DNA from: Gemmata massiliana
GTDB lineage: Bacteria > Planctomycetota > Planctomycetia > Gemmatales > Gemmataceae
Direction: 5' to 3'
DNA: 64,000 nucleotides
Assembly (NCBI RefSeq): GCF_901538265.1
Contig: NZ_LR593886.1
Coordinates: 3,022,843 to 3,086,842 of the forward strand
The notes under the pieces were generated by a model. That model ran no database searches. It was not told the origin of the DNA and worked only from the letters and a program-made list of their open reading frames with translations. Below are positions 5,058 through 38,569 of the stretch, piece by piece. Every line of letters starts with the position of its first letter. The first letter of the stretch is position 1. Position numbers and translations under genes: made by a program.

Positions 5058-5681
5058 ATGACCGAGGCCGAGTGGCTCGCGTGTGACGACGTGAAGCGGC
5101 TGCTGGAGCCGCTGCGGGACCGCGCGAGCGCGCGCAAGTTACGCCTGTTGGCGTGCGCACGAGCCTGGGGGCTGAGCGGGATCGCTCACGACCCGGTCTG
5201 TCTCGACGCGATCGCGATGGCGGAACGGTGCGCCGACGGGCACGTCGCGGAGCCCGAACGGGACGCCGTCTTCCGAGCGACCTGTATTCACTCGGACGAT
5301 GTGGAAGACCTCGGGCCACTGCGCTGGACCTTCGCGTTCGCGTCGGCCTTCGCCGTCGGCCCCCTGGCGGGCGACATCCACACGCACATCACCTCGGTGG
5401 GTCGTACCCCGCCGAATATGGAACTGCAACCGGCTCACGTCCGGGACATCTTCGGGAACCCGTTCCGCCCCGCGCCCTTCTCTCCGTCGTGGCGCACCTC
5501 GACTGCCGTGGAACTGGCGGCGCAGATGTACGAGTCGCGTGACTTCGGCGCGCTGCCGATTCTGGCGGACGCGCTCCAGGACGCGGGCTGCGACAATGCC
5601 GACGTGTTGGAGCACTGCCGCGGTCCGGGGCCGCACGTGCGCGGGTGCTGGGTCGTGGACCTGGTGCTCGACAAGGGGTGA
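5058..5681 (+). CDS. MTEAEWLA family protein, copy 1
   Basis: 207 residues. The N-terminal module is MTEAEWLAC, a short variable piece, then ARKLRLLACARAW and AERCADG. The middle is unique. The C-terminal module has RDIFGNPFRP, WRTSTAVELAAQMYESRDFG, then a Cys/His arrangement (DAGC, x7, HC, x5, H, x3, CW). No export signal or membrane segment, so probably cytoplasmic. The family is abundant in Gemmata-type planctomycetes but I know of no function. The invariant Cys/His spacing suggests metal binding or a redox-sensitive fold (inference). The last residues here are LDKG instead of LGKE. Confidence 0.8.
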   Translation: MTEAEWLACDDVKRLLEPLRDRASARKLRLLACARAWGLSGIAHDPVCLDAIAMAERCADGHVAEPERDAVFRATCIHSDDVEDLGPLRWTFAFASAFAVGPLAGDIHTHITSVGRTPPNMELQPAHVRDIFGNPFRPAPFSPSWRTSTAVELAAQMYESRDFGALPILADALQDAGCDNADVLEHCRGPGPHVRGCWVVDLVLDKG

Positions 5682-6046
5682 TCGCAATTGATATGTGGAC
5701 ACATTTGGAAATTGTATTTATTTTCACTACTGATATCGATGTCGTATTTTCCGTGTGGGTATAATGCCGCGAGGTAGCGGTGCGCGCGGACTGCACGCAC
5801 GAGCGGAAACCGTGGCAGGTCGTGTCACGAATGTTGGCCGGCGCGAGCGGGGAACATTGTTTCCCCCCGGGCGAAATGAAGGTACGAACGACCGCGGTCC
5901 CGAAACGTTAGCAAATGTCACTCTCGCCGCCGGCGGTGAAGCGCGTGCACGTTCCCGACGGCCATTCCGGGTTGCACCCGGCGCGGGATCGGTCATGCTA
6001 TTGTGGTAATTGGACGGCGTGCCGAAGATCCCACGGGGCGCAGGAA
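5682..6046. other. Gene-free stretch, partly AT-rich
   Basis: No supported coding frame. Bases 5690-5760 are markedly AT-rich against the GC-rich surroundings and could hold promoter elements for the 6047 gene; no clear -10/-35 pair can be named. Confidence 0.45.
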
Positions 6047-6361
6047 ATGAACCGCGAACCGGTCCTACTCGCCGTGGTGCCCAGCCCGTTCGTTCTGGCC
6101 TTTTGGGGACTGGTCGTTGCGGACCCGTCGTTTGCGAACGAGTGGCCGTTCGCCGCGCAATATCTGCTCGCGGTCCTCTGCGGGTTCGTGATGTTTTCCC
6201 TCGGCCCGATTGCCGGGTTCGCGGCGGTGAGGTGCGGGCGCGAGCTCCGGACCCGCGGGTGGCGCTCGGCCCGGTACGCGCTGCCGGCCCTCGCCATCGG
6301 ACTGACCGCGTTCCTGGTCAACCTGTGGTGCTTCGTGTTCATCGCTGGCCCGGCGTGCTGA
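6047..6361 (+). CDS. Small inner-membrane protein
   Basis: 104 residues from the ATG at 6047, preceded by a GGGGCGCAGGAA leader. Three hydrophobic segments: VLLAVVPSPFVLAFWGLVV, YLLAVLCGFVMFSLGPIAGF and LPALAIGLTAFLVNLWCFVF. Family not recognised. It precedes the LRR genes but is probably a separate unit, since 53 bases separate them. Confidence 0.65.
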   Translation: MNREPVLLAVVPSPFVLAFWGLVVADPSFANEWPFAAQYLLAVLCGFVMFSLGPIAGFAAVRCGRELRTRGWRSARYALPALAIGLTAFLVNLWCFVFIAGPAC

Positions 6362-6414
6362 CCGACTACCGAGGGCCGCCGCGTTTCCCTTCCTGCTCGC
6401 AATCGGGAGCACCG

Positions 6415-7950: not shown

Positions 7951-7986
7951 TGTGGGCACGTGGGAACCGAATCGTGGGGGTATGTA

Positions 7987-9027: not shown

Positions 9028-9099
9028 CTCGAACGTGCGGTTGATGGGCGGTCACAGTTGTCCCCCTCGCGCGGGTATAATCGGGCGGGAGGGCGACCG

Positions 9100-9855
9100 A
9101 TGACCGAAGCGGAATGGCTCGCGTGCGTGGACCCGGAACCGATGCTCCGGGCGCTCGGGGCGGGGGAGCCGCCGGTCCCGGTGGCCGACGCGCGCCGGGC
9201 GCGGCTGTTCATGTGCGCGTGCTGCCGGCGCGTCGAGGTGGTGCTCCCCACGTTCTGGAACCGGGCCGACCTGGACACGGCCGAGCGGCTCGCGGACGGG
9301 CTCGTCTCGGACCGGGAGCACCAGGAGTCCGCGCGCAACGTCGGCGACAGTATGAGCGCGGTCCACCGGCGCCTCATCAACGAGGCCCGCGGGGGCGCTC
9401 GCGCGGGCGGCGCGCCCGGGCGCACCGGGGCGGAACTGGCCGCGCTGCGTGGGCTCCGCGCGGCGCTGGTGGAGACGCGGCTCTTCTACGCGAGCGGGGA
9501 AGACGCGCGCACGGGGGCCGTCCTCGCGCTGTCAGCGGCCACGAGCGCGGACGAATTCGAGGACGAGGAGAGCCCCTCGCACCGCGCCGAACGCGCCGCC
9601 CAGTCCGCGCTGCTCCGGGACATCTTCGGGAACCCGTTCCGCCCGGTGGCATTCTCCCCCGAATGGCGCACGTCGACTGCGGTCGCGGTGGCGGCGCAGA
9701 TGTACGAGTCGCGTGAGTTCGGTGCGATGCCGATTCTGGGGGACGCACTTCAAGATGCCGGATGCGACAGCGCCGACGTGCTGGACCACTGCCGCGGACC
9801 GGGGCCACACGTGTACGGGTGCTGGGTCGCGGACTTGGTGCTGGGCAAGGAGTAG
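9100..9855 (+). CDS. MTEAEWLA family protein, copy 2
   Basis: 251 residues from the ATG at 9100; the leader GGGCGACCG before the ATG is shared with copies 3, 4 and 9. N-module MTEAEWLACVDPEPML and RLFMCACCRRVEVV, then AERLADG. The middle is arginine/alanine-rich with EARGGARAGGAPGRTGAE. C-module RDIFGNPFRPVAFSPEWRTSTA through CWVADLVLGKE with all Cys/His residues. First gene of a run of five family members (9100-12941). Confidence 0.8.
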   Translation: MTEAEWLACVDPEPMLRALGAGEPPVPVADARRARLFMCACCRRVEVVLPTFWNRADLDTAERLADGLVSDREHQESARNVGDSMSAVHRRLINEARGGARAGGAPGRTGAELAALRGLRAALVETRLFYASGEDARTGAVLALSAATSADEFEDEESPSHRAERAAQSALLRDIFGNPFRPVAFSPEWRTSTAVAVAAQMYESREFGAMPILGDALQDAGCDSADVLDHCRGPGPHVYGCWVADLVLGKE

Positions 9856-9887: not shown

Positions 9888-10598
9888 ATGACCGAAGCGG
9901 AGTGGCTCGCGTGTAACGACCCGCTTCAAATGTTGGACCTCTTCGGGGCGAGTCGCGGTTCGCGGGTGCTCCACTGGCTCCGGTACCGCCGGCACGTTCC
10001 GTGTGCGAGCAAGCGCAAGCTGCGGCTCTTCGCGGCGGGGTGCTGTCGGCTGGTCCGGGACAAGTTCAACGAGCACCAGCAGCGGATCGACGCGGCCGAA
10101 GATTTCGCGGACGGGGTGCCGTGGCCCACTTCGGGGTTCGGCCAGCAGCAGCGGATGGAAGCGATCGAAGATTTCGTGGGCAGGGTGCCGTGGCCCGGTC
10201 CGGGGGTCGGCCCCTGGTGGATCGCGTTCGATCGGCCCGACGCCTTGTGGCTCGCCCGGTTCGTCGCGGAGTGGGCAATCACCGGAGAGGTGAACAAGCT
10301 CGACCTCACGAGAGCCCCGCAGCGGCGTACCGCGGACAGGGAGGTGCGCGTCCTGCGCGACCTCTTCGGGAACCCGTTTCGCCCGGTGGCGTTCGCCCCC
10401 GCGTGGCGCACCTCGACCGCCGTCGCAGTGGCGTCTCAGATGTACGAAGCGCGTGACTTTAGCGCGATGCCGATTCTGGGCGACGCGCTGCAAGACGCGG
10501 GCTGTGATAGCGCCGAGGTGCTCGATCACTGCCGCGATGCCGGCGCGCCCCACGTGCGCGGGTGCTGGGTCGTGGACCTCGTGCTCGGCAGGGAATGA
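9888..10598 (+). CDS. MTEAEWLA family protein, copy 3
   Basis: 236 residues from the ATG at 9888, 32 bases after copy 2. The N-module carries KRKLRLFAAGCCRLVRDKF. The middle contains an internal duplication: AAEDFADGVPWPTSGFG is followed by AIEDFVGRVPWPGPGVG. The C-module differs by RDLFGNPF and by one extra residue between the last Cys pair (HCRDAGAPHVRGCW). Probably co-transcribed with copy 2. Confidence 0.8.
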   Translation: MTEAEWLACNDPLQMLDLFGASRGSRVLHWLRYRRHVPCASKRKLRLFAAGCCRLVRDKFNEHQQRIDAAEDFADGVPWPTSGFGQQQRMEAIEDFVGRVPWPGPGVGPWWIAFDRPDALWLARFVAEWAITGEVNKLDLTRAPQRRTADREVRVLRDLFGNPFRPVAFAPAWRTSTAVAVASQMYEARDFSAMPILGDALQDAGCDSAEVLDHCRDAGAPHVRGCWVVDLVLGRE

Positions 10599-10901: not shown

Positions 10902-11486
10902 ATGACCGAAGCGGAATGGTTGGGGCAGGCGCAACCGCGGGTCATGTTGGCCTTCGTGTGCCCACGAACCTCCGACCGGAAATTACGACTTTTTGGGTGC
11001 GCTGAATTCCGGCTGCAATTGAGACCTCCAGAAGACATCTGTGACGAGTACGGTTACGGCATCCTCCGCGTCACCGAGCGGTACGCAGACGGACAGATTA
11101 CGGCGGACGAACTCGCCCAAGCCAACGAGCGGGTTCGGGGCGACGAGAGGGATTTTTACCCGTCGATAGCATGGTTCGTTTCATCCGACGATGTGTTTCT
11201 CAGGGGCGCGGCCCCCCGGTATCTCGGTCGTAATTCGGACATCATCCGCTGCGTCTTCGGGAATCCGTTCCGCTCGATCACCTTCCTTCCGGATTGGCGC
11301 ACCTCGACGGCGGTGACACTGGCGGCGCAGATGTACGAATCGCGGGACTTCGGCGCGATGCCGATTCTGGGCGACGCACTCCAAGATGCCGGCTGTGACA
11401 ACGAGGATGTGTTGAACCACTGCCGCGAACCGGGTGTCCATGTGCGCGGGTGCTGGGTCGCGGACCTAGTGCTCGGCAAGGAGTGA
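10902..11486 (+). CDS. MTEAEWLA family protein, copy 4
   Basis: 194 residues, the shortest intact copy, from the ATG at 10902. The N-module is less strict (MTEAEWLGQAQPRVML, then SDRKLRLFGCAEF, so the usual Cys pair becomes one Cys). The C-module is RCVFGNPFRSITFLPDWRTSTAV and ends CWVADLVLGKE. The next copy starts 3 bases after the stop, so the two are coupled. Confidence 0.78.
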   Translation: MTEAEWLGQAQPRVMLAFVCPRTSDRKLRLFGCAEFRLQLRPPEDICDEYGYGILRVTERYADGQITADELAQANERVRGDERDFYPSIAWFVSSDDVFLRGAAPRYLGRNSDIIRCVFGNPFRSITFLPDWRTSTAVTLAAQMYESRDFGAMPILGDALQDAGCDNEDVLNHCREPGVHVRGCWVADLVLGKE

Positions 11487-11489
11487 TCC

Positions 11490-12143
11490 GTGACCGAAGC
11501 GGAGTGGATCGGGCACGCGGTTCCGGGGCTCATGCTCCGGTTCCTGGGCGACGCGGCGGGCGAGCGCCGGCTGCGGCTCTTCACGTGCAGTTGCGCGGAA
11601 CTGGTGTGGCACGCGATGCTCGAGCGCGAGGTACCGCGCGTCCTGGAACTCGCGTGGGCCGCCGCGGACGGGCTGTTCCCCGCGTCCGAACTGGAGGTTC
11701 TCGCCCCACAGCCCACAACCGGGCCGCTGGTGGGCCTGTACGCGGACCAAGTCCTGCAAGGCGCCTGTCGCTCCCCGTTCCCGGACACCGCGGCGACGAG
11801 TCGCAGGAACGTCGAGGCCCTCGCGGTCGTGCTCGCCGCGGACACCGGACGGGACACGGCGCGGGCCTCGGTCGCGTCGCGCACCACGTTAGCGAACTTC
11901 CTGCGCGACATCTTCGGGAACCCGTTCCGCCCGATGGCGCTTGCCCCCGAATGGCGCACGTCCACGGCTCTGGCGCTGGCCGCGCAGATGTACGAGTCGC
12001 GCGAGTTCGGCGCGCTGCCCATTCTGGCGGATGCGCTGCAAGATGCGGGGTGCGACAGCGCCGATGTGCTGAACCACTGCCGTGAGCCCGGTGTCCATGT
12101 GCGCGGGTGCTGGGTCGTTGATGGGGTGCTGGGGAAGGCGTAA
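11490..12143 (+). CDS. MTEAEWLA family protein, copy 5
   Basis: 217 residues from a GTG at 11490, directly after copy 4. N-module MTEAEWIGHAVPGLML with RRLRLFTCSCAELVW; middle with alanine-rich helices; C-module RDIFGNPFRPMALAPEWRTSTALALAAQMY in pieces through CWVVDGVLGKA. The ending GVLGKA is unusual, since nearly all copies end LVLGKE. Confidence 0.78.
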   Translation: MTEAEWIGHAVPGLMLRFLGDAAGERRLRLFTCSCAELVWHAMLEREVPRVLELAWAAADGLFPASELEVLAPQPTTGPLVGLYADQVLQGACRSPFPDTAATSRRNVEALAVVLAADTGRDTARASVASRTTLANFLRDIFGNPFRPMALAPEWRTSTALALAAQMYESREFGALPILADALQDAGCDSADVLNHCREPGVHVRGCWVVDGVLGKA

Positions 12144-12194: not shown

Positions 12195-12941
12195 GTGATC
12201 CCGACGCGCTACAAAGCGAAGATTTCCGAGTTTCTCTCCCACCTGCTCGGTACCGGGGACGCCCCTCGCGGGCTGACCGGCGTGCCGTACCTCGGCGAAC
12301 GGCCCTGGGCGTTTCTTGAGGCGGTTCCAAAGGGGCCGAGGACCGAAGCGCAACGGGAGGCGTGCCAGGATCCGCACGCGCTGATCGATATGCTGCTGAA
12401 GCGCCCGGTCACGGAGCGAAAGTTACGACTCCTCGCGATCGCACGCGGCCGCTTCGTATGGGACCGGGGCCTGTTTGGGGACGCGCGCCTGGAGCAGGCG
12501 GTGCTGTTGGGCGAGCGGTTCGTGGAGGGGCTGGCGTCCGCGGACGAAATGCGGGCCGCGCGCGACCTCTTCGACCGCGCGTGGCTCGAACTCGTTCGGG
12601 CGGGAACTCACCGGCCCGCTTCGGCCGCCCGGTGCTGCGTTAGCACGAATCGCGATGAGATCGCGAACTGCGGAACGCTCCACGCGCAGTTACCGTTCAT
12701 TCGCGACATCTTCGGAGACCTACTCGACTCCGTCGCCTTCGCCCCCGAGTGGCGCACTTCCACTGCGGTTGCGCTCGCTTCGCAGATGTACGAGTCGCGC
12801 GAGTTCGGCGCGATGCCGATTCTGGGGGACGCGCTTCAGGACGCGGGCTGTGACAGCGCCGACGTGCTGAACCACTGCCGGGGTGAGGGACCGCACGTGC
12901 GCGGGTGCTGGGTCGTGGATCGTGTGTTGGGGAAGGAGTGA
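12195..12941 (+). CDS. MTEAEWLA family protein, copy 6, divergent N-terminus
   Basis: 248 residues from a GTG at 12195 (a TTG at 12156 is an alternative). It lacks the MTEAEWLA opening; instead about 55 unrelated residues (IPTRYKAKISEFLSHLLG) precede TERKLRLLAIARGRFVW, where the CC pair of other copies is gone. The C-module is intact (RDIFGDLLDSVAFAPEWRTSTAV, DAGCDSADVLNHC, CWVVDRVLGKE). It suggests that the C-module can be joined to a different head. Confidence 0.72.
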   Translation: MIPTRYKAKISEFLSHLLGTGDAPRGLTGVPYLGERPWAFLEAVPKGPRTEAQREACQDPHALIDMLLKRPVTERKLRLLAIARGRFVWDRGLFGDARLEQAVLLGERFVEGLASADEMRAARDLFDRAWLELVRAGTHRPASAARCCVSTNRDEIANCGTLHAQLPFIRDIFGDLLDSVAFAPEWRTSTAVALASQMYESREFGAMPILGDALQDAGCDSADVLNHCRGEGPHVRGCWVVDRVLGKE

Positions 12942-13466: not shown

Positions 13467-13626
13467 GAGCGAGCGATCCTCCGCCCTCGCACAACGACAC
13501 GGGCGGGGCTCGCTCCCCGGTTCGTGTGCAGGTGAACTGACACCGTTTGATCTAATATGGTAAGTTGATCGGCAGCGCGAGTTGATTCGGCAAGAAGTCG
13601 ATCCACGGGTCCGGCGGGGGGCATCA

Positions 13627-14313
13627 ATGGCTCAGCGTGTGTTCGAGTTGGTGTCGCCGTTTCCGCCCGAGGAGTGCGAAACCCGGCTCCGGGAGGCCGT
13701 CGTCCGCCCCGGGGTGTTCGCCGGGCTCGACGCACGGCCGGTACTCGGAACCGTTGAGAACCGCCGGGTTTCGCTTTGCAAAAAGGAGTGGCGCAACAAC
13801 GGTTTCCGCCCGTTCCTTCGTGGGCGGTTGGAGCCGCACGCGGACGGGGCGGTGCTGCGGTGCCGAACCGGGCTGCACCCGTTCACGCGTCTGTGGCTCG
13901 TACTGTTTCTGGTTCTGGGCGCCTTCGTCGCACTCGTCGGCGTGGCCAACATCTCGAGGGCACTCGCCGCCGACCGTCCCGTAGACCTCCGTATGCTCGG
14001 CCCGTGCGGACTGCTCGCGTTCGGGCTCGCGATCTGGCTCGCCGGTCGGTACCGCGCGCGCGGCGAGGGCCAGTTCCTGGTCACTTTTGCCGCCGAGGTG
14101 CTCGGGGCCGAACCGCGGGAACTGGAACCGGAGTCGCTGCTCACCACTCTCCGGCAGTGGAGCCCGCCCCCGTACCCGCGGCCGCGCGGGGAACCGGACG
14201 ACGGTCACCCCGAGTGGGTGCCCTCGTTCCCGGTGCTGCTCGTGGTCGGCGCGGTCGGCGTGGTGTTCGTCGCGTGTGCCGGCCTACCGATACTGACGGT
14301 GCTACTCGGTTGA
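13627..14313 (+). CDS. Membrane protein, paralog of the 22077 gene
   Basis: 228 residues from the ATG at 13627. A soluble head starts FELVSPFPPEECETRLREAV and matches IELAFPLPPDECTARLAAGT in the 22077 protein. Membrane helices are LWLVLFLVLGAFVALVGVAN, LGPCGLLAFGLAIWLAG and a C-terminal VLLVVGAVGVVFVACAGLPI. The shared phrase YRARGEGQFLVTF / WRRARGEGAFLVEF follows the second helix. Both genes are immediately followed by an MTEAEWLA copy, so the pairing may be functional. Unknown function. Confidence 0.7.
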   Translation: MAQRVFELVSPFPPEECETRLREAVVRPGVFAGLDARPVLGTVENRRVSLCKKEWRNNGFRPFLRGRLEPHADGAVLRCRTGLHPFTRLWLVLFLVLGAFVALVGVANISRALAADRPVDLRMLGPCGLLAFGLAIWLAGRYRARGEGQFLVTFAAEVLGAEPRELEPESLLTTLRQWSPPPYPRPRGEPDDGHPEWVPSFPVLLVVGAVGVVFVACAGLPILTVLLG

Positions 14314-14392: not shown

Positions 14393-15130
14393 ATGACCGA
14401 AGCGAAATGGCTCGCGTGCGGGAACTCGGTGTTGATGTTGTCGCAGATCGATGACACGACCAACTACCGTAAGTTGCGGCTGTTCACCTTCGCGTGCTGC
14501 CGCCGGTGCTGGGATCAATTGGGCGAAGATAGTCAGACTGCCATTGATGTTGCGGAGCAGTTCGTGGAAGAAAAAGTGGGAGAAGCCGAGTTGCTGGATG
14601 CTTGGAGGAATACTGATTATTACCTCCCCCATCCATTTGATGACTCTGGCTTTGTCGGTTACCGTCGCGGCTTTATTGGGCGTGGCGCGTCGCTGTCCTA
14701 TGCCGCCTGGGTTGCCGGTCGCGCTTCGGACATTGCTTGGTCGAGCGCCCGAAAGGACGACGCTTCACTCATTGCGCGTTGCGCTGCGGCGAGCCGGGCA
14801 TACAGCGGTATCGAGCGAATTGGTGGAAAACGATCTGAGTGGCGACGGTTTGAAGCAGAAGAGCTCGCTGCCCAGGCCGACTTGCTCCGCGATATCTTGG
14901 GCACGCGCCTGTTTCGATTAACGAACTTTCCTACCACGTGGCGCACTTCCACTGTTGTGGCGCTCGCTTCGCAGATGTACGAATCACGCGACTTCGGCGC
15001 GATGCCGATTCTGGCCGACGCGCTCCAGGACGCGGGGTGCGACAGCGCCGATGTGCTCGATCACTGCCGGGGTGAGGGGCCGCACGTGCGCGGGTGCTGG
15101 GTCGTGGACTTGGTGCTCGGCAAGGAGTAG
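14393..15130 (+). CDS. MTEAEWLA family protein, copy 7
   Basis: 245 residues from the ATG at 14393. MTEAKWLACGNSVLML, YRKLRLFTFACCRRCW, AEQFVEE, then a middle rich in Tyr and Ala. The usual IFGNPFRP block is altered to RDILGTRLFRLTNFPTTW, but WRTSTVVALASQMYES and the Cys/His tail are kept. Codon use in the middle is less GC-rich than in the ends. Confidence 0.78.
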   Translation: MTEAKWLACGNSVLMLSQIDDTTNYRKLRLFTFACCRRCWDQLGEDSQTAIDVAEQFVEEKVGEAELLDAWRNTDYYLPHPFDDSGFVGYRRGFIGRGASLSYAAWVAGRASDIAWSSARKDDASLIARCAAASRAYSGIERIGGKRSEWRRFEAEELAAQADLLRDILGTRLFRLTNFPTTWRTSTVVALASQMYESRDFGAMPILADALQDAGCDSADVLDHCRGEGPHVRGCWVVDLVLGKE

Positions 15131-16159: not shown

Positions 16160-16813
16160 GTGAGCGAACCACGCAAGCAACGGCTCGCCTACAGTTGGCC
16201 CCACCGGTTGCACCGGCTGTTCGTGTGCGCGATGTGTCGGCACGTGCTCCCCCTCATCGACAGCCCGGAACTGGCCGGCGTTCTGGAAACGGCGGAGGCT
16301 TTTGCCGACGGCACGGCATCCGTCGAGGACATGGCCCGCGCCCGCGCGGTATTCTTATCAGCTACGGGCTCGTTTGAGGGGGACGCGCGAATCGCTGCTC
16401 TCGCGGCGCAGATATACTGGGCCACGGAAGTCGGAACTGCTCATACTTGGGGCGAACTGACCCTCGGGATCATCGATCCACAAGCCGCTCCGACTGTCGG
16501 AGAGGCTATCTTCGCCAACCTGGACCTGCTCCTGAGCGAGGGCGTGGCGTCACTTCCCGAACTCGATTACGCGAGCCTGTTTGATGACATCGAACGGCGC
16601 GCCGTGCCCTTCTCTCCTTCCTGGCGCACTTCCACTGCGGTTGCGCTCGCTTCCCAGATGTACGAAGCGCGTGAGTTCGGCGCGCTGCCGATTCTGGGGG
16701 ACGCGCTCCAGGACGCGGGGTGTGACAGCGCTGATGTGTTGAACCACTGCCGCGCACCGGGTGTCCATGTGCGCGGGTGCTGGGTCGTGGACCTGGTGCT
16801 CGGCAAGGAGTAG
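16160..16813 (+). CDS. MTEAEWLA family protein, copy 8, missing first module
   Basis: 217 residues from a GTG at 16160. It lacks MTEAEWLA and opens SEPRKQRLAYSWPHRLHRLFVCAMCRHVLP, so the RKLRLFACACCRR region is replaced by a similar CAMC block, followed by AEAFADG. The IFGNPFRP block is reduced to AVPFSPSWRTSTAV; the tail is complete (DAGCDSADVLNHCRAPGVHVRGCW in parts). It begins just after the structured repeat, which may have altered its 5' end. Confidence 0.7.
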   Translation: MSEPRKQRLAYSWPHRLHRLFVCAMCRHVLPLIDSPELAGVLETAEAFADGTASVEDMARARAVFLSATGSFEGDARIAALAAQIYWATEVGTAHTWGELTLGIIDPQAAPTVGEAIFANLDLLLSEGVASLPELDYASLFDDIERRAVPFSPSWRTSTAVALASQMYEAREFGALPILGDALQDAGCDSADVLNHCRAPGVHVRGCWVVDLVLGKE

Positions 16814-18423: not shown

Positions 18424-18657
18424 TCGGTCTCGGCCCTCTCGAACAGCATGTAGTGGCGCGGGACCGGCTCGCGCGTCCGCGACTTTTTCGGCGCGCCACC
18501 ATTTTTCGCGAACCGCTGTCGAATACCGAAGGATACCGGCTCCTGACCCGAGCAGGAAGGTAATGGAACCAACGACCTTGTGATGCGCTGCGACCCAGGA
18601 ACCGGGACTTGTGGGCCGGCGCCGGAACGATCATGCTGGGAGTTAAGGGGGCGACCG

Positions 18658-19296
18658 ATGACTGAAGCGGAATGGCTGGCATGTGATTCACCGGTGGCAC
18701 TTTTGGCGCTCCTCAATGCCGATGGTTACAGTCGGAAATTGCTGCTGTATGCTTCGGCGTTGTGCGCGCTTCGCCCGGACTTGTTGACGGAAACGCTTCG
18801 TCGTTGGTCGTCTTTGGTGGATGCCGTACTAACCGGAGAGGAACGGCCGGGCGCAATGGACGAGTGGCAAGAATCGGCAGAAGATGAGTGCTCGGAACTT
18901 GCAGACTCAGGTCCGCCCGAAACACGCGCTTACTATTCAGTTCTAGCACAGGTCGTGTTTTGCAGTTGGATCAATGACCCCAAGGAACTTGACATTCCTC
19001 CACCCGTCGTCGTGGGGATTGGTCCGATGCGGCGAACCGCTTCTAATCTCATCCGCGACATCTTCGGCAACCCGTTCCGCCCCGTGGTCTTCTCTCCCTC
19101 CTAGTGCACCGCCACCTCTGTCGCACTGGCGGCGCAGATGTACGAATCGCGTGACTTCGGCGCGATGCCGATCCTGGGGGACGCGCTGCAAGATGCGGGT
19201 TGTGACAACACCGACGTGCTGGACCACTGCCGCGATTCTCGTGCGCCGCACGTGCGCGGGTGCTGGGTCGTCGATCTCGTGCTCGGCAAGGAGTAG
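18658..19296 (+). pseudogene. MTEAEWLA family, copy 9, broken by a nonsense codon
   Basis: The ATG at 18658 has the shared GGGCGACCG leader. The frame reads MTEAEWLACDSPVALLALL, then YSRKLLLYASALC, a variable middle and RDIFGNPFRPVVFSPS, where a TAG at 19102-19104 replaces the invariant Trp of WRTSTA (TGG to TAG, with the following CGC changed to TGC). The same frame then continues without further lesions to CWVVDLVLGKE at 19296. Translation would give a 148-residue product without the Cys/His tail unless the stop is read through. Confidence 0.8.
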
Positions 19297-21897: not shown

Positions 21898-22076
21898 GCC
21901 CGTCCCCTTGTGATGAGCGTCTCGAAACTGGCATGGCACGGCCATTCTCGCACAATTTATTAACAATAGCAAGATCGTTCGATTTAGTTCGGGGTGCGGC
22001 AAAGAGTGGCGATCGTGTGGTCGTGGCGGTATGCTGGGTCTGATACCGTCCGCGCACGTAACGAGGCCCGGTGGCG

Positions 22077-22616
22077 ATGGCCCGCATCGAACTCGCGTTC
22101 CCACTACCCCCGGACGAGTGTACCGCGCGCCTGGCCGCGGGCACGAACCGGACCCGCGCGCTGTTCTTCGAGGACGAGCCCAAAGCGGTGTACGGGCGCG
22201 TCGAGGCCGGGCTGGTGAATGTGCGGCGGCGCGCGCCCCGCAGCCAGCTCCAGATGTGCCTCTCGGGAGCGTTCGAGGCGCGCGGGCCGGGGACCGTGTT
22301 CCGGGGTCGGATCGGGTGGGACGTTTCGTCCTGGTGCGCCCTGGTTGTCTTCGTGATGAACGCGTTGGTCTGGGCGTTTTTGCTGACCGTGAATGCGAAC
22401 AGCACATCTTCCGGGATCGGTCCGTGGCTGCTGCTGGCGCTACCGCTTGTAACCGTTGTGGGTGCCTTCAGCTTGTGGCGCGATTGGCGCAGAGCCCGCG
22501 GCGAGGGCGCGTTCCTGGTCGAGTTCCTGCGCCGGACCCTCGGCGGGACCGCGGACGAGAACGCGCCCGCGAGCAGTGAAGTGCGAGCCCGGGCGGGCTT
22601 CGGAGGGCACCTGTGA
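22077..22616 (+). CDS. Membrane protein, paralog of the 13627 gene
   Basis: 179 residues from the ATG at 22077 (a GTG at 22071 is possible). Soluble head IELAFPLPPDECTARLAAGT, then two membrane segments (SSWCALVVFVMNALVWAFLL and GPWLLLALPLVTVVGAFSLW), then WRRARGEGAFLVEFLRRTLG. The stop overlaps the GTG start of MTEAEWLA copy 10 (GTGA), indicating translational coupling of the two. Confidence 0.72.
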   Translation: MARIELAFPLPPDECTARLAAGTNRTRALFFEDEPKAVYGRVEAGLVNVRRRAPRSQLQMCLSGAFEARGPGTVFRGRIGWDVSSWCALVVFVMNALVWAFLLTVNANSTSSGIGPWLLLALPLVTVVGAFSLWRDWRRARGEGAFLVEFLRRTLGGTADENAPASSEVRARAGFGGHL

Positions 22617-23275
22617 CCGAGGCGGAATGGCTCGCGTGCGAAGAGTCGGACGCGATGATTCAGTTGCCGGCCGGCAAAAAGAGCGACCGAAAACTCAGAC
22701 TGTTCGCGGTGGCTTGCTGCGATCGTATTTCGCACCTTATTCCGACGGAGCCGAGCCGCCACTGTGTGGAAGTGGCACGGCGGCTCGCAGACGGCTCGGA
22801 ACGGCCGGGCGAGCGCCGCGCGGCCGTGATTGCGGCGATGGCCGACGAGGGAACCACCTCCGCTGCCGCCTGCGTCAGTGCCGTCAGCGCTTACGAAGCG
22901 GCCATAAGAACGGCCGATCATGCGGCTGTCGCCGTTGCGAGGGAGCAATACCCGGAACTGTACGAATCGGGGGAGCGAATACCGGAGTGGTACGACGTTA
23001 TTGGCATTGAGTCGATTGCTCAATGTGTTCTCCTCCGCGAGATCTTCGGGAACCCGTTTCGCCCCGTCGTCTTTTCTCCCTCCTGGCGCACCTCAACAGC
23101 CGTTGCGCTCGCGGCGCAGATGTACGAGTCACGCGAGTTCGGCGCGCTGCCGATCCTGGCGGACGCGCTCCAGGACGCGGGATGTGACAACGCCGATGTG
23201 CTGAACCACGGCCGCGGTGAGGGGCCGCACGTGCGCGGGTGCTGGGTCGTCGATTCGGTGTTGGGCAAGGAATGA
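22613..23275 (+). CDS. MTEAEWLA family protein, copy 10
   Basis: 220 residues from a GTG at 22613 overlapping the previous stop. N-module MTEAEWLACEESDAMIQL and SDRKLRLFAVACCDRI, AAARLADG-like block, variable alanine-rich middle, C-module REIFGNPFRPVVFSPSWRTS. The invariant HC of the tail is HG here (VLNHGRGEGPHVRGCW), the only intact copy with that Cys lost. This may be an early decay step or tolerated change. Confidence 0.78.
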   Translation: MTEAEWLACEESDAMIQLPAGKKSDRKLRLFAVACCDRISHLIPTEPSRHCVEVARRLADGSERPGERRAAVIAAMADEGTTSAAACVSAVSAYEAAIRTADHAAVAVAREQYPELYESGERIPEWYDVIGIESIAQCVLLREIFGNPFRPVVFSPSWRTSTAVALAAQMYESREFGALPILADALQDAGCDNADVLNHGRGEGPHVRGCWVVDSVLGKE

Positions 23276-29989: not shown

Positions 29990-30676
29990 ATGACCGAAGC
30001 GGAATGGCTGGCGTGTCTGGAACTGAGTCAATTGGCCGAGTGGCATCCGGATGCTGCGTCCGACCGTAAGGCACGGAAAGCGAGACTCTTTACCGTTGCG
30101 TGCTGCCGAAGAATCTGGGGTTTGATTGATCAGCCTGAACTCAGGGCGGCGGTCGAGGAAGCTGAGCGATTCGCCGACGGGTTGGTTTCGCAAGAGGAGC
30201 TTTGGGCAACACACTTAACCACGCCTTACGAAGTGGCCAAGCACGACGTTTGTAACGCAGTTGGATACACTCTCGTCGGCGGTGACCGAGCGTTGTACTT
30301 TTGGGAAGCTACGCATGGGGCTCGCTTTGCTCGAACTGCTACTGTCGGAAGTCGTGATCCATTGCCTATACAGGAACAAGAACAGCAGCGCCTCGCACTT
30401 TTAAAGACAGAAGAGCAGGAGCAAGGGAAATATTTTCATTGCGTGTTTGGGAACCCGTTCCGCCCCGTGGCCTTCTCCCCTTCGTGGAGCACCTCCACCG
30501 TTCACTCACTCGCTTCGCAGATGTACGAGTCGCGTGACTTTAGCGCGATGCCGATTCTGGGGGATGCGCTCCAGGACGCCGGCTGCGCGAGCGCCGATGT
30601 ACTGAACCACTGCCGGGGCGAGGGGCCGCATGTGCGCGGGTGCTGGGTCGTGGATTTGTTGCTGGGGAAGGAGTAG
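29990..30676 (+). CDS. MTEAEWLA family protein, copy 11
   Basis: 228 residues from the ATG at 29990. MTEAEWLACLELSQLAEW, an insertion (SDRKARKARLF), VACCRRIWGLID, AERFADG. The middle is unusually AT-richer and aromatic (YEVAKHDVCNAVGYTLVGG). C-module HCVFGNPFRPVAFSPSW is followed by STSTVHSLASQMYESRDFS, so the usual R of WRTST is S. The Cys/His tail is intact. Confidence 0.8.
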   Translation: MTEAEWLACLELSQLAEWHPDAASDRKARKARLFTVACCRRIWGLIDQPELRAAVEEAERFADGLVSQEELWATHLTTPYEVAKHDVCNAVGYTLVGGDRALYFWEATHGARFARTATVGSRDPLPIQEQEQQRLALLKTEEQEQGKYFHCVFGNPFRPVAFSPSWSTSTVHSLASQMYESRDFSAMPILGDALQDAGCASADVLNHCRGEGPHVRGCWVVDLLLGKE

Positions 30677-33946: not shown

Positions 33947-34122
33947 CGGGCGCGCCCGAAATTGTCCCGCGAGGGGGGGGCAGTGGTAGTGCCACTGGCC
34001 CCGCGCGTGCGCGCTGACTCCACCTCGGCTTGCCCGATGAGCGGGTGCGGCTTCGCGCTTGCCCCGTGCGCCGGATCTGTCATGCTGTATCGAGTTCGTT
34101 GGTCGCTGTCGTTTCGCGGAGA

Positions 34123-34546: not shown

Positions 34547-34606
34547 CACTACTCCGTTAGAAGCCCGCACCGGCGGTCGGGTTCGGGTCTCTAACTGGTC
34601 ATGAAG

Positions 34607-35812
34607 CAGGGTTGGCGCACTATGAACCCGTGACGGCAGCCGCATTTACGTCTATATCGGGGTTGTTATGGAGGAACCCCGATGAGTATTCCGCTGCTGG
34701 CGGTGTTTGCGGATGTGCCAGACCCGCGCCGCGAAACGAAGAACAAGTTGCATGAGCTGGTGGATATCCTCACGTTGGCCACGTGTGCGGTGATCGCCGG
34801 GGCCGACGGGTGGGACCAGGTGGCCGCGTTCGGTCGGGCCAAGCAAACGTTGTTCGCCCCGTACCTGCGGTTGCCCCACGGGGTTCCGAGCCCGGACACG
34901 TTCGAGCGCGTGTTCGCCAAGCTGGACCCGGACGCGTTCGCGGACCGGTTCGGGCGCTGGATGGCAGCCGCATGCGAGAGTACCGGCCTGGTGCACGTGG
35001 CGATCGATGGTAAGAGCGCCCGGCGGTCCACCAAGAACACGTTCACCGGGTGCTTGCATCTGGTCGAGGCGTGGGCCGTGGAGAACCGGTTGATCCTGGG
35101 CCAGCGGTCCGTGCCCGAGGGCGGACACGAGATCACCACGGCCCCAGATCTGTTGGGCGCCCTGGATCTGACGGGCGCGGTGGTGACCGTCGACGCGGCC
35201 TTTTGCCAGAAGGAGTTGGTGTCCCAGATCCGCACCCAGGGCGGGCATTACGTGGTGTGCGTGAAGGGGAACCAGAAGGAGGTGCGCGGCGCGGTGGCGG
35301 AGGTGTTCGCGCGGGCCGGGGAGGACGCGTTCGCCGGGTGTGACATGGGGTCCGCGGTCGAGGACGGGCACGGGCGCGAGGAAGAGCGGTACGTGACGGT
35401 GGTTGAAGATCCGGAAGGGCTACCGAGCGGGTGGGCCGATGTTGGGGCCGTGGCCCTGGTGTGCCGGGAGCGGGTGGTGAACGGGAAGCCGAATGAGAGC
35501 ACCGCCCATTACTACCTCACCAGCTTGCGGATCGGGGCGGTCGAGCTGGCGGGGTACATCCGCAACCATTGGGGCATTGAGAACGGGCTCCATTGGTGTC
35601 TGGACATCGCGTTCCGGGAAGACGACAGCCGGGCTCGGGCCGGACACGCCGGGGCCAACCTGGGCATGATTCGCCGGGTTGCCCTGTCCCTGCTCCAGCG
35701 GGCGGACACCAAGGGCAGCATTCGTACTCGACGCATGAAGGCCGCCTGGGACGATCAATACCTGCTCAAAGTGCTTAAGATTCTGACGACTAAATGAAGT
35801 GCGCCGGCCCTG
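34607..35812 (+). mobile_element. ISAs1-type element nested in the IS701-type element
   Basis: 1206 bases. Left end CAGGGTTGGCGCACT, right end complementary to CAGGGCCGGCGCACT. A 10-base target duplication GGTCATGAAG stands at 34597-34606 and 35813-35822, typical of ISAs1. It landed exactly at the start codon of the IS701 transposase, but the duplication rebuilds the ATG. Confidence 0.92.
34682..35797 (+). CDS. ISAs1 family transposase
   Basis: 371 residues, the usual length. N-terminal FADVPDPRRETKNKLHELVD and ILTLATCAVIAGADGWDQVA are hallmarks of DDE_Tnp_1-associated ISAs1 proteins; catalytic region AIDGKSARRS (first Asp), TVDAAFCQKEL (second Asp) and HWGIENGLHWCLDIAFREDD (Glu). A GGAGGAACCCCG leader with a good ribosome site precedes the ATG. 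Appears intact, so the element may be mobile. Confidence 0.93.
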   Translation: MSIPLLAVFADVPDPRRETKNKLHELVDILTLATCAVIAGADGWDQVAAFGRAKQTLFAPYLRLPHGVPSPDTFERVFAKLDPDAFADRFGRWMAAACESTGLVHVAIDGKSARRSTKNTFTGCLHLVEAWAVENRLILGQRSVPEGGHEITTAPDLLGALDLTGAVVTVDAAFCQKELVSQIRTQGGHYVVCVKGNQKEVRGAVAEVFARAGEDAFAGCDMGSAVEDGHGREEERYVTVVEDPEGLPSGWADVGAVALVCRERVVNGKPNESTAHYYLTSLRIGAVELAGYIRNHWGIENGLHWCLDIAFREDDSRARAGHAGANLGMIRRVALSLLQRADTKGSIRTRRMKAAWDDQYLLKVLKILTTK

Positions 35813-35816
35813 GGTC

Positions 35817-37115
35817 ATGAAGACATACACCCCGAACCTCGACGCGGCCGTTCTCGAGCGCCTGCGCGAGTACGCGGCCCTATTTGCCCCCGACTTTCCC
35901 CAGGCCAAGCCCGCACGGTGGGCCGGGGTATACCTGCACGGGCTGCTCACCGACGGCGATCGGAAAAGCATCGAACCCCTGTCCCACCGGGTACCGCTGC
36001 CCGCCGGGCTGACCAGCACGGACCCCGAACAGGCGCTCCAGCAGTTCGTGAGCCAGAGCCCGTGGGACCACGAGGCCGTCCTGCGCCGCTACCGCGCCCA
36101 AGTGGGCGCCACGTTCGCCCACCCCGACGCGGTGTTCGTGATCGACGACACCACGTTCCCGAAGCAAGGGCGGCACTCGGTCGGGGTGCAAAGGCAATAC
36201 TGCGGGGCGCTCGGGAAGAAGGCCAATTGCCAGGCCGCGGTCTCGATCCACTACGCCGCCCCGATGGGGCACTACCCACTCGCCTTGCGGCTGTTCCTTC
36301 CCGAGTCGTGGGTGGCCGACGCCGGCCGCCTGAAGCGGGCCGGGGTGCCGCAAGAGCACCGCCGGGAGCGCACGAAGGGGCAAATCGCGCTGGACCTGTT
36401 GGACCGGGTTCGGGGCGAGGGGTTGCCGGGCCGTGTGGTCCTGGCCGACGCCGGGTACGGTGTGTCCGGGGACTTCCGTCAAGCCCTGGCCGATCGCGGG
36501 CTACACTACATCGTCGGGGTGACGGACGAGGCCGTTGTGTTCACCACCCCGCCGGTCTGGGATCGACCGGCGGGACGCGGCAGGGTCGGACCAGCCGGCG
36601 GGCGGCCGCAGTCCAACCCCCAGTTGCGGCCAGACTCGCCCCGCCCGGTCCGGTTGCGAGACGTGGCCGCCCGCACCCCGCTCCGGCGGGTGACTTGGCG
36701 CGTGGGGACGAAGGGGCGGATGTCGGGCCGGTTCGCCTGGGTGCGGGTATGGCCCGGGGTCGGGTGGAAGCGGGGTGCGTGCGCCGGTTCCGACCCGGTG
36801 TGGTTGCTAATCGAGGAGCAGGCCGACGGCGTCAAGTACGCCTTCTCGAACCTGCCGACGGGGACGAGCCGCCTGCGGGCCGTCCGCCTGTGGAAGAGCC
36901 GGTGGCATGTGGAACAGGGGTACCAGCAGATGAAGGAGGAGTTGGGTCTGGACCACTTCGAGGGGCGCTCGTGGCGCGGGTTCCACCACCACGCCGCGAT
37001 GGTTATGCTGGCTTACGGGTTCCTGCTCTTGGAGCGGGAGCGTGCTCGCGTCGAACGGGAGCGGGCGGCCGACGGGCCGAGCCCGCGAAAAAAGGGGAGC
37101 CCGAGCCGCCGCTGA
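35817..37115 (+). CDS. IS701 family transposase, zero frame
   Basis: 432 residues from the ATG at 35817, which lies inside the ISAs1 target duplication. DDE_5-type landmarks: FVIDDTTFPKQGRHSVGVQRQ (first catalytic Asp region), VVLADAGYG (second Asp), RWHVEQGYQQMKEELGLDHF (Glu). The zero frame ends at SPRKKGSPSRR. The -1 frame from the A6G4 run at 37088-37097 continues as EPPLTLPGIRRALQQLL to a TAA at 37217-37219, which is the first triplet of the terminal repeat. The -1 extended product would be about 466 residues and matches typical IS701 C-termini. Confidence 0.9.
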   Translation: MKTYTPNLDAAVLERLREYAALFAPDFPQAKPARWAGVYLHGLLTDGDRKSIEPLSHRVPLPAGLTSTDPEQALQQFVSQSPWDHEAVLRRYRAQVGATFAHPDAVFVIDDTTFPKQGRHSVGVQRQYCGALGKKANCQAAVSIHYAAPMGHYPLALRLFLPESWVADAGRLKRAGVPQEHRRERTKGQIALDLLDRVRGEGLPGRVVLADAGYGVSGDFRQALADRGLHYIVGVTDEAVVFTTPPVWDRPAGRGRVGPAGGRPQSNPQLRPDSPRPVRLRDVAARTPLRRVTWRVGTKGRMSGRFAWVRVWPGVGWKRGACAGSDPVWLLIEEQADGVKYAFSNLPTGTSRLRAVRLWKSRWHVEQGYQQMKEELGLDHFEGRSWRGFHHHAAMVMLAYGFLLLERERARVERERAADGPSPRKKGSPSRR

Positions 37116-37229
37116 CACTGCCGGGCATTCGCCGAGCGTTACAGCAGTTGCTCCGACCGGTGGCCAAACCAGATTGCGCCTACTGTCGCTCACGGCGGTC
37201 GCACCCGCTCCAGATGTAACGGAGTAGTG

Positions 37230-37781
37230 TTAAAAGAGCTTACGAAATTCCGCGATCTCACCAGCCTGAACCTGGACAGTACGAAGATCACGGACGCGGG
37301 CCTCAAGACCGTCAGTAAACTCACCAACTTAACCTACCTCAGCGTGTGCTACACGGGGGTGACGGACGAGGGACTCAAGGTTATTGGTGATCTCAAGCAC
37401 TTGACCTCGCTCTCACTGAACTCCACGAAGGTGACCGACACGGGTTTAAAGGAACTGGCCGCACTGTCGGAACTCAAGTGGCTCACGTTGAACGTCACGG
37501 GGATCACGGACACGGGCTTGAAGGAACTGGCCCCACTCAAGAAACTCGTGTTCCTCGAATTGGAGCACACGGAAATAACTGATGCGGGGCTGAAGGAACT
37601 ATCGGCCCTCAAGTCTCTTGGCAACCTCCGACTGAGCAACACGAAGATAACAGACGCGGGAGTGAAGGATCTGGCCGCGCTCGGGGCCATCAAGTACCTC
37701 GAACTCCGGAAAACCAAGCTAACGGACGACGGGTTAAAGCTGCTCCAGAAGGCACTGCCCGATTGCAAAATCCAGAACTGA
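37230..37781 (+). pseudogene. Exported LRR protein 4, 3' part, split by an IS
   Basis: Begins with the second TTAA and continues the LRR frame as KELTKFRDLTSLNLDSTKIT through about seven repeats of the TDAGLKEL type to LPDCKIQN. No start or export signal of its own. See the 5' part at 34123. Confidence 0.85.
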
Positions 37782-37899
37782 TTGAGTCGGCGGCTGCACG
37801 ACCTTCGGTACCCGACCCGCAAGGGCAACGGGTGTGCCCCGGAGCCTTGTCCCGGGCGCCGCGATCGGTCATGCTGGGAGCGATTCCCGGGAGCGACCG

Positions 37900-38569
37900 A
37901 TGACCGAAGTGGAGTGGCTGGCTGGCAGTGATCCGAAGCCGATGTTGCAATTTCTGAGCGACAAGGCGAGCGACCGGAAGCTGCGCTTGTTCGCCGTCGC
38001 GGTCGCCCGCCGGTGTCCGGGCGACGTAACCGACCCCGCGCTGGCCGAGGCCGTCGATGTGGCCGAACTTGCGAGCGACGGGATCGTGGGGCAAGACGCA
38101 CTACTCGCCGCGGTGAGACGAGCGGACAGTCTGGTCGGGACGCTATTCATCCGGGACGGTGAACGGCCGCCTTGGAATGCCACCCCGGTAGAAATTCGTG
38201 CTCCCATGCATTGGGCGTTTATTGCGACTTCTCCCGGGCACATGCACATGGCCGCGCTGCGGGACTGCGATTTGTTTCATTGTGGGTGGGCGAGCAAACT
38301 CAACCGCGCCCACCAACCGCCCGTACTCCGTGAGATCTTCGGGAACCCCTTTCGCCCCGTCACCTTCCCTCCGGAATGGCGCACCTCCACCGTTCTCGCA
38401 CTGGCCGGGCAGATGTACGAGTCGCGCGAGTTCGGCGCGATGCCGATGCTGGCGGACGCGCTGCAAGATGCAGCGCTGTGATAGCGCCGATGTGCTCGAT
38501 CACTGCCGGGGTGAGGGGCCGCACGTGTACGGGTGCTGGGTCGTGGACTTGGTGTTGGGGAAGGAGTAA
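37900..38569 (+). pseudogene. MTEAEWLA family, copy 12, frameshifted
   Basis: The ATG at 37900 opens MTEVEWLAGSDPKPML, SDRKLRLFAVAVARRC, then a variable middle and REIFGNPFRPVTFPPEWRTS. At about 38470 one base is gained (GATGCAGCGCTGTGATAG where other copies read GATGCGGGCTGTGATAG), so the frame stops at 38481 just before the Cys/His tail. The tail (CDSADVLDHCRGEG, CWVVDLVLGKE) continues in the +1 frame to 38569. In the N-module the Cys pair is also lost (VAVARRC). Confidence 0.8.

What the first reader, a model, noticed from the sequence alone, without database searches (positions are those of the whole stretch)
5058..38569. Twelve-member MTEAEWLA family with conserved ends and variable middle
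Copies at 5058, 9100, 9888, 10902, 11490, 12195, 14393, 16160, 18658, 22613, 29990 and 37900 share an N-module (MTEAEWLAC...RKLRLF.CACCRR...ADG) and a C-module (RDIFGNPFRP, WRTSTAVALAAQMYES, DALQDAGC...CWVVDLVLGKE), but their middles are unrelated in length and sequence. The C-module is also close at DNA level. I know the family only as uncharacterised and Gemmata-type. A conserved frame around a diversified centre is what one expects of recognition proteins or of units exchanged by recombination.
Basis: partly seen in the sequence, partly recalled or inferred. Interest (0 to 1): 0.85.

Follow-up and report, generated by a model that had tools for sequence, protein, structure and literature searches.

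The report
Shuffled family of likely immunity genes
A Gemmata-type bacterium carries about 150 copies of a gene with fixed ends and an ever-changing middle; sequence comparison shows that the middles are swapped between copies, and the proteins are most likely a large stock of antidotes against toxins of rival bacteria, which still has to be tested.

Summary
All 12 copies are in the window (two broken, two with an altered N-terminus) and belong to a family with at least 157 matches in the 10.1-Mb genome (about 150 loci). It is in 19 of 19 sampled genomes of the genus and 2 of 6 others of its family. The N-module plus middle is a distant relative of the putative immunity domain Imm5_like (PF21805), below Pfam's cut-off. 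The C-module is also fused to SMI1/KNR4 (SUKH) immunity domains, ankyrin repeats and a WD40 protein.

Exchange between copies is well supported. N- and C-module genealogies are uncoupled (Mantel r 0.02). Of 11 loci conserved on both sides with Gemmata sp. IIL30, 5 hold a family gene with unrelated N-module and middle. Three more IIL30 genes join flanks from two places of this genome. C-modules of otherwise matching genes are usually more diverged at silent sites than the rest. One relative has a biotinyl domain as its middle. One member rides an IS66 element in 12 identical copies in a related genome.

My reading: a dispersed 'polyimmunity' repertoire renewed by cassette exchange through conserved ends. 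The immunity function is inferred.

The parts
5058..5681 (+). family gene, 207 aa; N-module 5061-5267, C-module 5436-5675
9100..9855 (+). family gene, 251 aa; N 9103-9327, C 9607-9852; second AlphaFold2 model
9888..10598 (+). family gene, 236 aa, insertion in the N-module; N 9891-10133, C 10347-10595; begins 32 bases after the stop of the preceding copy
10902..11486 (+). family gene, 194 aa, short middle; N 10905-11123, C 11238-11483; stop 3 bases before the next copy
11490..12143 (+). family gene, 217 aa, GTG start; N 11493-11696, C 11895-12137
12195..12941 (+). family gene, 248 aa, with a non-family N-terminal extension; N 12342-12560, C 12696-12938
14393..15130 (+). family gene, 245 aa; N 14396-14602, C 14879-15127
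16160..16813 (+). family gene, 217 aa, without the MTEAEWLAC start; N 16184-16342, C 16574-16810
18658..19293 (+). broken family gene: in-frame TAG at 19102-19104 in the C-module; N 18661-18855, C pieces 19045-19101 (E 0.03) and 19108-19293
22613..23275 (+). family gene, 220 aa, GTG start; N 22616-22825, C 23030-23272; first AlphaFold2 model
29990..30676 (+). family gene, 228 aa; N 29993-30208, C 30428-30673
37900..38566 (+). broken family gene: frame shift in the C-module at about 38472; N 37903-38112, C pieces 38323-38472 and 38474-38566
18609..18637 (+). promoter-like TTGTGG-N17-CATGCT of the kind conserved upstream of many copies (consensus match, not evidence of function)
37847..37875 (+). 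promoter-like TTGTCC-N17-CATGCT of the same kind (consensus match, not evidence of function)

Best explanation
The family is a very large, mostly dispersed repertoire of proteins without a visible export signal, predicted to be all helical and made of two parts. An N-terminal part (N-module plus middle) is a distant relative of the putative immunity domain Imm5_like. A constant C-terminal module of about 82 aa is also joined to other immunity-type domains.

SHOWN by sequence comparison: copies exchange their N-module plus middle as cassettes. Identity breaks in the conserved start of the gene and in the roughly 240-bp C-module. As a result, a locus can keep its flanks and C-terminus while the variable part is replaced, C-modules are re-sorted, copies are gained or lost in tandem, and flanks from different chromosome regions are joined at family genes. 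One member also spreads as passenger of an IS66 element.

INFERRED: homologous recombination as the agent; and that the proteins are orphan immunity proteins ('polyimmunity'). Each middle would bind and neutralise a different toxin variant of competitors or kin, the N- and C-modules supply the frame, and recombination keeps renewing the set.
For: Copy number and range: at least 157 matches in the genome, dispersed with tandem runs; 19 of 19 sampled genomes of the genus incl. this one (2 to at least 79 matches each), 2 of 6 of other genera of the family, 0 of 16 outside the family.

Imm5_like link: PF21805 over the whole genome gives 9 hits at E<=1, none over the cut-off; 5 of the 9 lie on family copies or an N-module fragment, the best at 6.5e-4 (places compared). 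In reverse, an HMM of N+middle from 196 family rows finds two of the three planctomycete proteins that pass the PF21805 cut-off at 4.8e-6 and 6.8e-6 (Z=1000), against 0.13 for the best of 1,206 shuffled or reversed decoys (0.025 by best domain); hhalign probability 94%. A viral-contig relative matches PF14423 Imm5 at 1.7e-4, below cut-off.

Immunity company: one open frame holds SMI1_KNR4 (SUKH-1) plus C-module in L226 (587 aa) and in L150 (414 aa). 5 of 19 SMI1_KNR4 genes lie within 2 kb of a family copy, 0.87 expected, P 0.003 (within 1 kb 2 of 19, P 0.09). The genome has 8 Rhs cores, and a pretoxin-HINT domain ends the window.

Exchange: Mantel r N-C 0.02 (P 0.41) against 0.49 between the two halves of C. 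Of 21 IIL30 loci in A3, 11 match this genome on both sides: 5 with the same gene, 5 with unrelated N and middle (middle 17-26% aa identity) but C-module 70-85%, 1 with an extra copy; 3 more have flanks from two places. In the cleanest case (L116/L213) flanks are about 95% identical up to the start codon and from the stop, the middle 40%. pS of C exceeds that of N+M in 15 of 16 matching pairs; ratio median 1.84 against 1.21 in 28 neighbour ORFs, P 0.004.

IS66.
Against: No member scanned passes a Pfam cut-off for Imm5 or Imm5_like; 3 of 85 members match Imm5_like at E<=10 and 2 of 112 in another set at E<=0.05. A third true Imm5_like protein (L313) is not found by the family model, nor are the alanine-repeat viral relatives. 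One relative (L128) has a biotinyl/lipoyl domain in place of the middle (PF00364, 27.9 bits, cut-off 22.1), so the middle slot need not be an Imm5-like domain. Foldseek finds no solved structure at E<=0.001. Family copies are not near Rhs toxins: 0 of 8 cores within 5 kb. No toxin-like recurrent partner was seen among 282 called neighbours (largest similarity cluster 32, linked by common domains and not examined further; then 7 LRR and 7 prepilin-type). Selection on the middle is purifying in general (pN/pS 0.51; one of 16 pairs above 1), not diversifying. The SUKH proximity rests on 19 genes. One pair of 16 has no C-module excess, and single control ORFs reach ratios up to 2.73. IIL30 is a scaffold-level draft, so some joined flanks could be assembly errors.
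Confidence: 0.55

Rival explanations
1. Selfish or passenger genes: the cassettes spread because IS66 elements and recombination between their conserved ends carry them, with little or no benefit to the host.
For: IS66 element with a member as passenger, 12 of 12 fetched copies with the exact 2322-bp sequence in G016; a decayed one with an intact member in this genome; no toxin-like recurrent partner; broken copies exist; a relative whose middle is a captured biotinyl domain.
Against: All three parts are under purifying selection in 16 pairs (pN/pS 0.27, 0.51, 0.25); 123 ORFs keep both modules against 7 visibly split copies and about 6 fragments; the C-module is reused in multidomain proteins.
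Confidence: 0.2
2. Intracellular recognition or adaptor proteins of another kind, for example phage sensing or scaffolds of the large LRR/Roc signalling repertoire of these bacteria; the constant C-module recruits a common partner.
For: Relatives in viral contigs, a weak phage fold match (E 0.03, probability 1.00) and a PHROG hit; C-module joined to WD40 and ankyrin proteins; an LRR-Roc-COR protein and LRR genes between the copies of the window.
Against: No PADLOC model matches any of 12 members; genes with the TIGR02996 domain are not clustered with the family (3 of 89 within 2 kb, P 0.76); the nearest named domain is a putative immunity domain.
Confidence: 0.17
3. The middle is a neutral alanine-rich spacer between two functional ends.
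For: Middle is Ala-rich (17.8% against 11.7% in N and 10.4% in C), of very variable length and of high entropy; viral relatives have long AAYAANAADAA repeats there; one relative has a biotinyl domain there.
Against: pN/pS 0.51 with bootstrap 0.37-0.63; two models with unrelated middles (22613, 9100) give a similar order of helices; the match to Imm5_like runs into the start of the middle.
Confidence: 0.05
4. Ordinary old duplicates that diverged without exchange.
For: Some loci keep the same gene between species (5 of 11).
Against: Uncoupled genealogies; unrelated cassettes between flanks that are about 91-97% identical; a duplicated block that begins inside the C-module and runs 2.9 kb downstream of two different upstream genes.
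Confidence: 0.03

Closest known systems
Imm5_like / Imm5 putative immunity domains (Pfam PF21805, PF14423)
   Same: The block RxLRLxACxCxxR...D.R.R.AIexArxxAxG...el..A is shared with Imm5_like and detectable both ways at modest E-values; Imm5 is listed as mostly alpha and among domains combined in polyimmunity proteins (PMC3482391, passages read).
   Different: Members stay below the Pfam cut-offs, have a constant C-terminal module, are mostly dispersed, number about 150 per genome, and no toxin gene was found beside them.
esaG and tipC immunity gene arrays of firmicute type VII secretion (PMC9484751; abstract, one results section and discussion read)
   Same: Blocks of high DNA similarity (at 5' and 3' ends in tipC) around variable regions, recombination through these blocks, copy number change; the authors speculate that variable regions alter toxin specificity.
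   Different: Those are arrays of up to 12-15 genes; here the copies are spread over the chromosome and exchange seems to reach across megabases. No Pfam match to any such family was found.
Homogeneous polyimmunity loci (PMC3482391, passages read)
   Same: Many paralogous immunity-type genes, some in tandem, without toxin genes nearby.
   Different: Not one locus but a genome-wide set; immunity activity unproven.
PHROG 18326 (unknown function)
   Same: Matches the N-part (residues 13-109 of the 22613 protein) in 46 of 85 members, best 8.7e-9.
   Different: No function given; described from phages.
IS66-family transposon with passenger gene
   Same: PF03050 transposase, matching terminal repeats, 8-bp target duplications.
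   Different: Only one lineage of the family was seen to be carried.

Membership tests
Imm5_like (PF21805) | score over the Pfam gathering cut-off (25 bits) | tested here: not met
   best family copy 22.5 bits; 3 of 85 members at E<=10, best 4.2e-4; 2 of 112 at E<=0.05, best 1.6e-4
Imm5_like (PF21805) | homology detectable by profile in both directions | tested here: met
   5 of 9 genome hits fall on the family; two of three true members found at 5e-6 to 7e-6 against 0.13 for the best decoy, the third (L313) not
Imm5_like (PF21805) | neutralises a cognate toxin | not testable with these tools
   needs an experiment
Imm5 (PF14423) | Pfam match | tested here: not met
   one genome hit, E 0.25, not on a family copy; a viral-contig relative at 1.7e-4, 22.2 bits against 25
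polyimmunity locus | several paralogous immunity-type genes together without toxin genes | tested here: inconclusive
   tandem runs present; no Rhs core within 5 kb of a copy; that they are immunity genes is inferred
recombining immunity paralogues (esaG/tipC type) | conserved DNA blocks at the ends act as crossover points between paralogues | tested here: met
   (no dedicated recombination program such as RDP was available)
IS66 passenger gene | gene inside the terminal repeats with an IS66 transposase and 8-bp target duplications | tested here: met
   G016: 12 of 12 exact elements, 8-bp repeats exact in 8, offset by one base in 2, not seen in 2; transposase PF03050 8.7e-36. Holds for this lineage only
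TIGR02996 (rpt_mate_G_obs) | C-module homologous to the 45-aa domain | tested here: not met
   hhalign probability 0.8%, 10 columns
PADLOC anti-phage defence families | model match | tested here: not met
   0 families at E<=0.1 for 12 members
diversity-generating retroelement target | nearby reverse transcriptase and template repeat | not tested
   not searched; the observed change is replacement of whole cassettes

The most novel reading that the evidence does not exclude
A bacterial, chromosome-wide 'constant and variable' repertoire: about 150 recognition proteins per genome whose variable cassettes are continually swapped among dispersed loci through a protein-coding homology arm (the C-module). 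The same arm is grafted onto other immunity domains, can accept a foreign domain in the middle slot, and is carried by transposons, giving each strain its own set of toxin specificities.
Probability: 0.35. Interest if true: 0.82.

Novelty: new variant of a known kind. Interest (0 to 1): 0.64.

Why it matters
It gives a very large unnamed gene family of Gemmata-type genomes a domain ancestry, a mode of evolution and a testable function. Recombining immunity repertoires are known from arrays of about a dozen genes. Here the same logic seems to run across a whole chromosome, over about 150 loci, and may explain some rearrangements between Gemmata genomes. The C-module is a handle for finding unknown immunity domains: whatever is fused to it is a candidate. 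Searches of the open library for Gemmata families, polyimmunity and Rhs immunity (listings, plus passages of PMC8567305) showed no description of it. Mahajan et al. 2020 on paralogization in planctomycetes was seen only as a citation and not read; it may list the family.

Tried and rejected
C-module as a form of TIGR02996: the motif PILADALQDAG looks like RLVYADWLDEHG, but hhalign gives 0.8%. Rejected.

Solved-structure relatives: the profile search of PDB sequences gives only E>=0.38; Foldseek gives no E<=0.001; VIA-align gives no Z>=5, and the C-module rows (Z 3-5) are short helical stretches incl. TPR proteins, below the level at which the tool advises trust. So no fold is claimed.

RXYLT1_C, VbhA and Hepcidin Pfam hits: weak, taken as chance.

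Plasmids and phages: no tblastn match to the 22613 protein; none for a viral-contig relative in phages; one weak partial plasmid match to an Imm5_like protein.

Phylum scan: 4 of 392 genomes incl. this one, but only 7 candidates per genome were scored, so this is a floor.

Positive selection in the middle: not found in general. Rhs proximity: not found. SuFu immunity domains: none in this genome at E<=0.01.

The window array (8 copies) against IIL30: most listed matches are C-module length; one copy (9100) matches over its whole length at 68%. Only 40 of 439 candidates were scored, so the absence of others is not proof.

Rows dropped: 12 of 123 ORFs before the 111-copy alignment (N or C incomplete, or 300 aa or longer); 2 of 78 loci before A3 (L139 C-module only, L146 broken); 10 repeats among 26 printed pairs. 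Of the 16 pairs three are paralogues within one genome and one is with another species than IIL30. Four of the 123 ORFs had no start codon near the N-module and were kept. The 28 control ORFs were called by codon usage and may include spurious ones.
Full report
OBSERVATION. The twelve copies are real, and no others were found in the window. Two are broken in the C-module (18658 by an in-frame TAG, 37900 by a frame shift), and 12195 and 16160 have altered N-termini. In the whole 10.1-Mb genome the family has at least 157 matches, incl. a few genes counted in two pieces and fragments (150 of 313 candidates scored). They are dispersed, with tandem runs and a dense stretch: 33 of 111 complete copies lie between 2.84 and 3.26 Mb. 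All 19 sampled genomes of the genus have it; of other genera in the family 2 of 6; outside the family 0 of 16. Genome G009 has contigs of the same lengths as Gemmata sp. IIL30 (compare), so I treat them as the same.

ANATOMY. Over 111 complete copies the C-module (about 82 aa) is nearly fixed, the N-module (about 60 aa) moderately so, and the middle, 35-146 aa long, has high entropy. AlphaFold2 models of two window proteins with unrelated middles are confident (pLDDT 89.5 and 85.1, pTM 0.86 and 0.83) and all helical, with a similar order of helices; parts of the middle have pLDDT 60-77. No solved structure matches clearly. The best viral model, of an uncultured phage protein, has E 0.03, probability 1.00 and TM 0.43-0.50. 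Some copies share a promoter-like stretch ending about 24 bp before the start (26 of 116 by a loose pattern), and the first 24 bp of the gene are strongly conserved.

WHAT THE N-PART IS. Curated libraries miss it. Two searches in opposite directions point to Imm5_like. PF21805 run over the genome gives nine sub-threshold hits, five of them on family copies or an N-module fragment. The family model finds two of the three planctomycete proteins that pass the PF21805 cut-off above 1,206 decoys; the third is not found. Viral-contig relatives have a similar layout with alanine-repeat middles; one of them scores 1.7e-4 for Imm5, but the family model does not find them. I therefore call the N-part a distant relative of Imm5_like, not a member.

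AN EXCEPTION THAT TELLS. One relative, L128 (a Planctomycetaceae MAG), has normal N- and C-modules but a biotinyl/lipoyl domain between them (residues 73-145; PF00364 27.9 bits, cut-off 22.1; TIGR00531 5.3e-19, below its cut-off). So the slot between the ends can take up a foreign domain. It is 1 of 85 in A3; none of the 111 other members scanned showed such a match.

WHAT THE C-MODULE JOINS. 153 C-module and 130 N-module hits were found in this genome's fetched regions, 123 ORFs with both. The C-module without a clear N-module also ends ankyrin and WD40 proteins and a sub-threshold DUF4259 protein (22.3 against 22.8 bits). In two open frames SMI1_KNR4 (SUKH-1) precedes it. SMI1_KNR4 genes are near family copies more often than chance (5 of 19 within 2 kb, P 0.003; 2 of 19 within 1 kb, P 0.09), unlike TIGR02996 genes (3 of 89 within 2 kb, P 0.76) and Rhs cores (0 of 8 within 5 kb). 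Operons of polyimmunity proteins usually lack toxin genes, according to passages read in PMC3482391, so the last point does not speak strongly either way.

EXCHANGE. (1) Over all pairs of 111 copies, nucleotide identity of N and of C is uncorrelated (Mantel r 0.02, P 0.41), while the two halves of C correlate (0.49) and N and middle weakly (0.14). (2) A 3.0-kb duplicated block (92%) begins about 127 bp before the stop of two C-modules whose upstream parts differ, an Imm5-like gene and a WD40 protein. (3) In 16 unique matching pairs the pS of the C-module exceeds that of N+middle in 15; the median ratio is 1.84, against 1.21 for the last 82 codons of 28 neighbour ORFs (P 0.004). Some controls reach 2.7, so single pairs prove little; the extreme pair is L072/L203 with a ratio of 8.8. 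(4) In several of the pairs the gene alone matches while both flanks are unrelated, with the match starting at or shortly before the ATG and ending at the stop. (5) The strongest test: of 21 IIL30 loci in A3, 11 match this genome on both sides of a family gene. Five hold the same gene (L072, L073, L093, L096, L141), five hold one whose N and middle are unrelated (L080, L086, L091, L116, L131), and one has an extra tandem copy (L071). Several of these matches resume only after a gap next to the gene (L080 and L096 upstream; L086, L091, L093, L096 and L131 downstream), and L131 lies in an array; L116/L213 is clean up to the gene on both sides. Three more (L074, L081, L090) have one flank from one place of this genome and the other flank from another; IIL30 is a draft, so assembly error is not excluded for these. 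In-place divergence can hardly give unrelated middles between 91-97% flanks when true pairs keep 74-95% of their middle residues.

MOBILITY. In genome G016 a 2,322-bp IS66 element carries a full family gene behind its transposase. All 12 fetched copies contain the exact sequence; 8 have exact 8-bp direct repeats, 2 more with an offset of one base, 2 none (transposase PF03050). This genome has a decayed element of the same kind with an intact member (8350400-8351086). Related elements in G009 carry other small ORFs in that slot.

SELECTION. Pooled pN/pS is 0.27 (N), 0.51 (middle, bootstrap 0.37-0.63) and 0.25 (C). The middle is constrained but tolerant; one pair has a dN/dS of 1.19 there.

MECHANISM, WITH STEPS MARKED. 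Shown: conserved gene ends, cassette replacement between conserved flanks, C-module re-sorting, one transposon-borne lineage; joined flanks at family genes with the caveat above. Inferred: homologous recombination as the agent (no enzyme tested); binding of toxins by the middle; benefit as a stock of immunities. The precedent is esaG and tipC (PMC9484751: abstract, one results section and discussion read), where recombination through conserved blocks around variable regions is reported and the toxin-binding face of TipC is the most diverged. That the genome makes polymorphic toxins is supported by 8 Rhs cores, one just outside the window, and by a pretoxin-HINT domain at the window's right end.

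VERDICT. It is a new variant of a known kind, not a categorically new system: no name for the family was found, the scale and dispersal are unusual, and the exchange is well supported. The function remains to be tested.

Noticed in passing
63258-63989 (-), with an Rhs core just outside at genome position 3087267: Pretoxin-HINT domain (PF07591, 1.3e-22) at the right window edge beside an Rhs core: a polymorphic toxin gene; the 162-aa ORF at 62767-63252 (-) behind it has no Pfam match and is a candidate immunity gene.
   Followed up: partly
L128:3001-3735: Family relative whose middle is a biotinyl/lipoyl (BCCP-like) domain between normal N- and C-modules.
   Followed up: partly
24347-27280 (-): 978-aa LRR-Roc-COR protein (Pfam Roc, COR-A, COR-B), a ROCO-type GTPase, among the family copies.
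   Followed up: partly
34606-35815, 35813-37233, 39203-40647: Three insertion sequences (DDE transposases) with 99% or more identical copies elsewhere among the fetched regions of the genome, two of them abutting.
   Followed up: partly
L327 ca 801-1291 and L317 ca 2960-3453 (genome G009): IS66 elements related to the one carrying the family gene hold other small ORFs (a 175-aa and a 103-aa, probably membrane proteins) in the passenger slot: a slot with changeable cargo.
   Followed up: no
just after the stops of the copies at 9888, 16160, 22613; also L168, L187, L203, L205, L213: A dispersed repeat (TTCACCGCAGAGGGCGCGGAGAGCGCAGA and variants) begins shortly (roughly 10-20 bp) after the stop codon of several family genes.
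   Followed up: no
L258, L260, L261 (viral contigs): Full-length family relatives in IMG/VR contigs carry an inserted cysteine-rich stretch (CxxCxGxG-like in L258 and L260) inside the C-module, before its long helical part.
   Followed up: no
L263, L264, L265, L267 (viral contigs): Relatives whose middle is a long AAYAANAADAA or RAARAADAADA repeat, followed by a C-module equivalent (L267 is cut off before an N-part).
   Followed up: partly
genome-wide: 92 matches to TIGR02996 (repeat-companion domain) in this genome, none in 14 control genomes: a second large Gemmata family, not clustered with this one.
   Followed up: partly
L165, L198, L209, L237 upstream of family genes: An upstream stretch (GACCCCACGGGGAACAG...) shared by four dispersed copies, so some duplications include more than the gene and its promoter.
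   Followed up: no
13582-14310 and 22071-22613 (+): Two paralogous proteins without Pfam match (243 and 181 aa, hydrophobic stretch), each close upstream of a family gene in the window.
   Followed up: no
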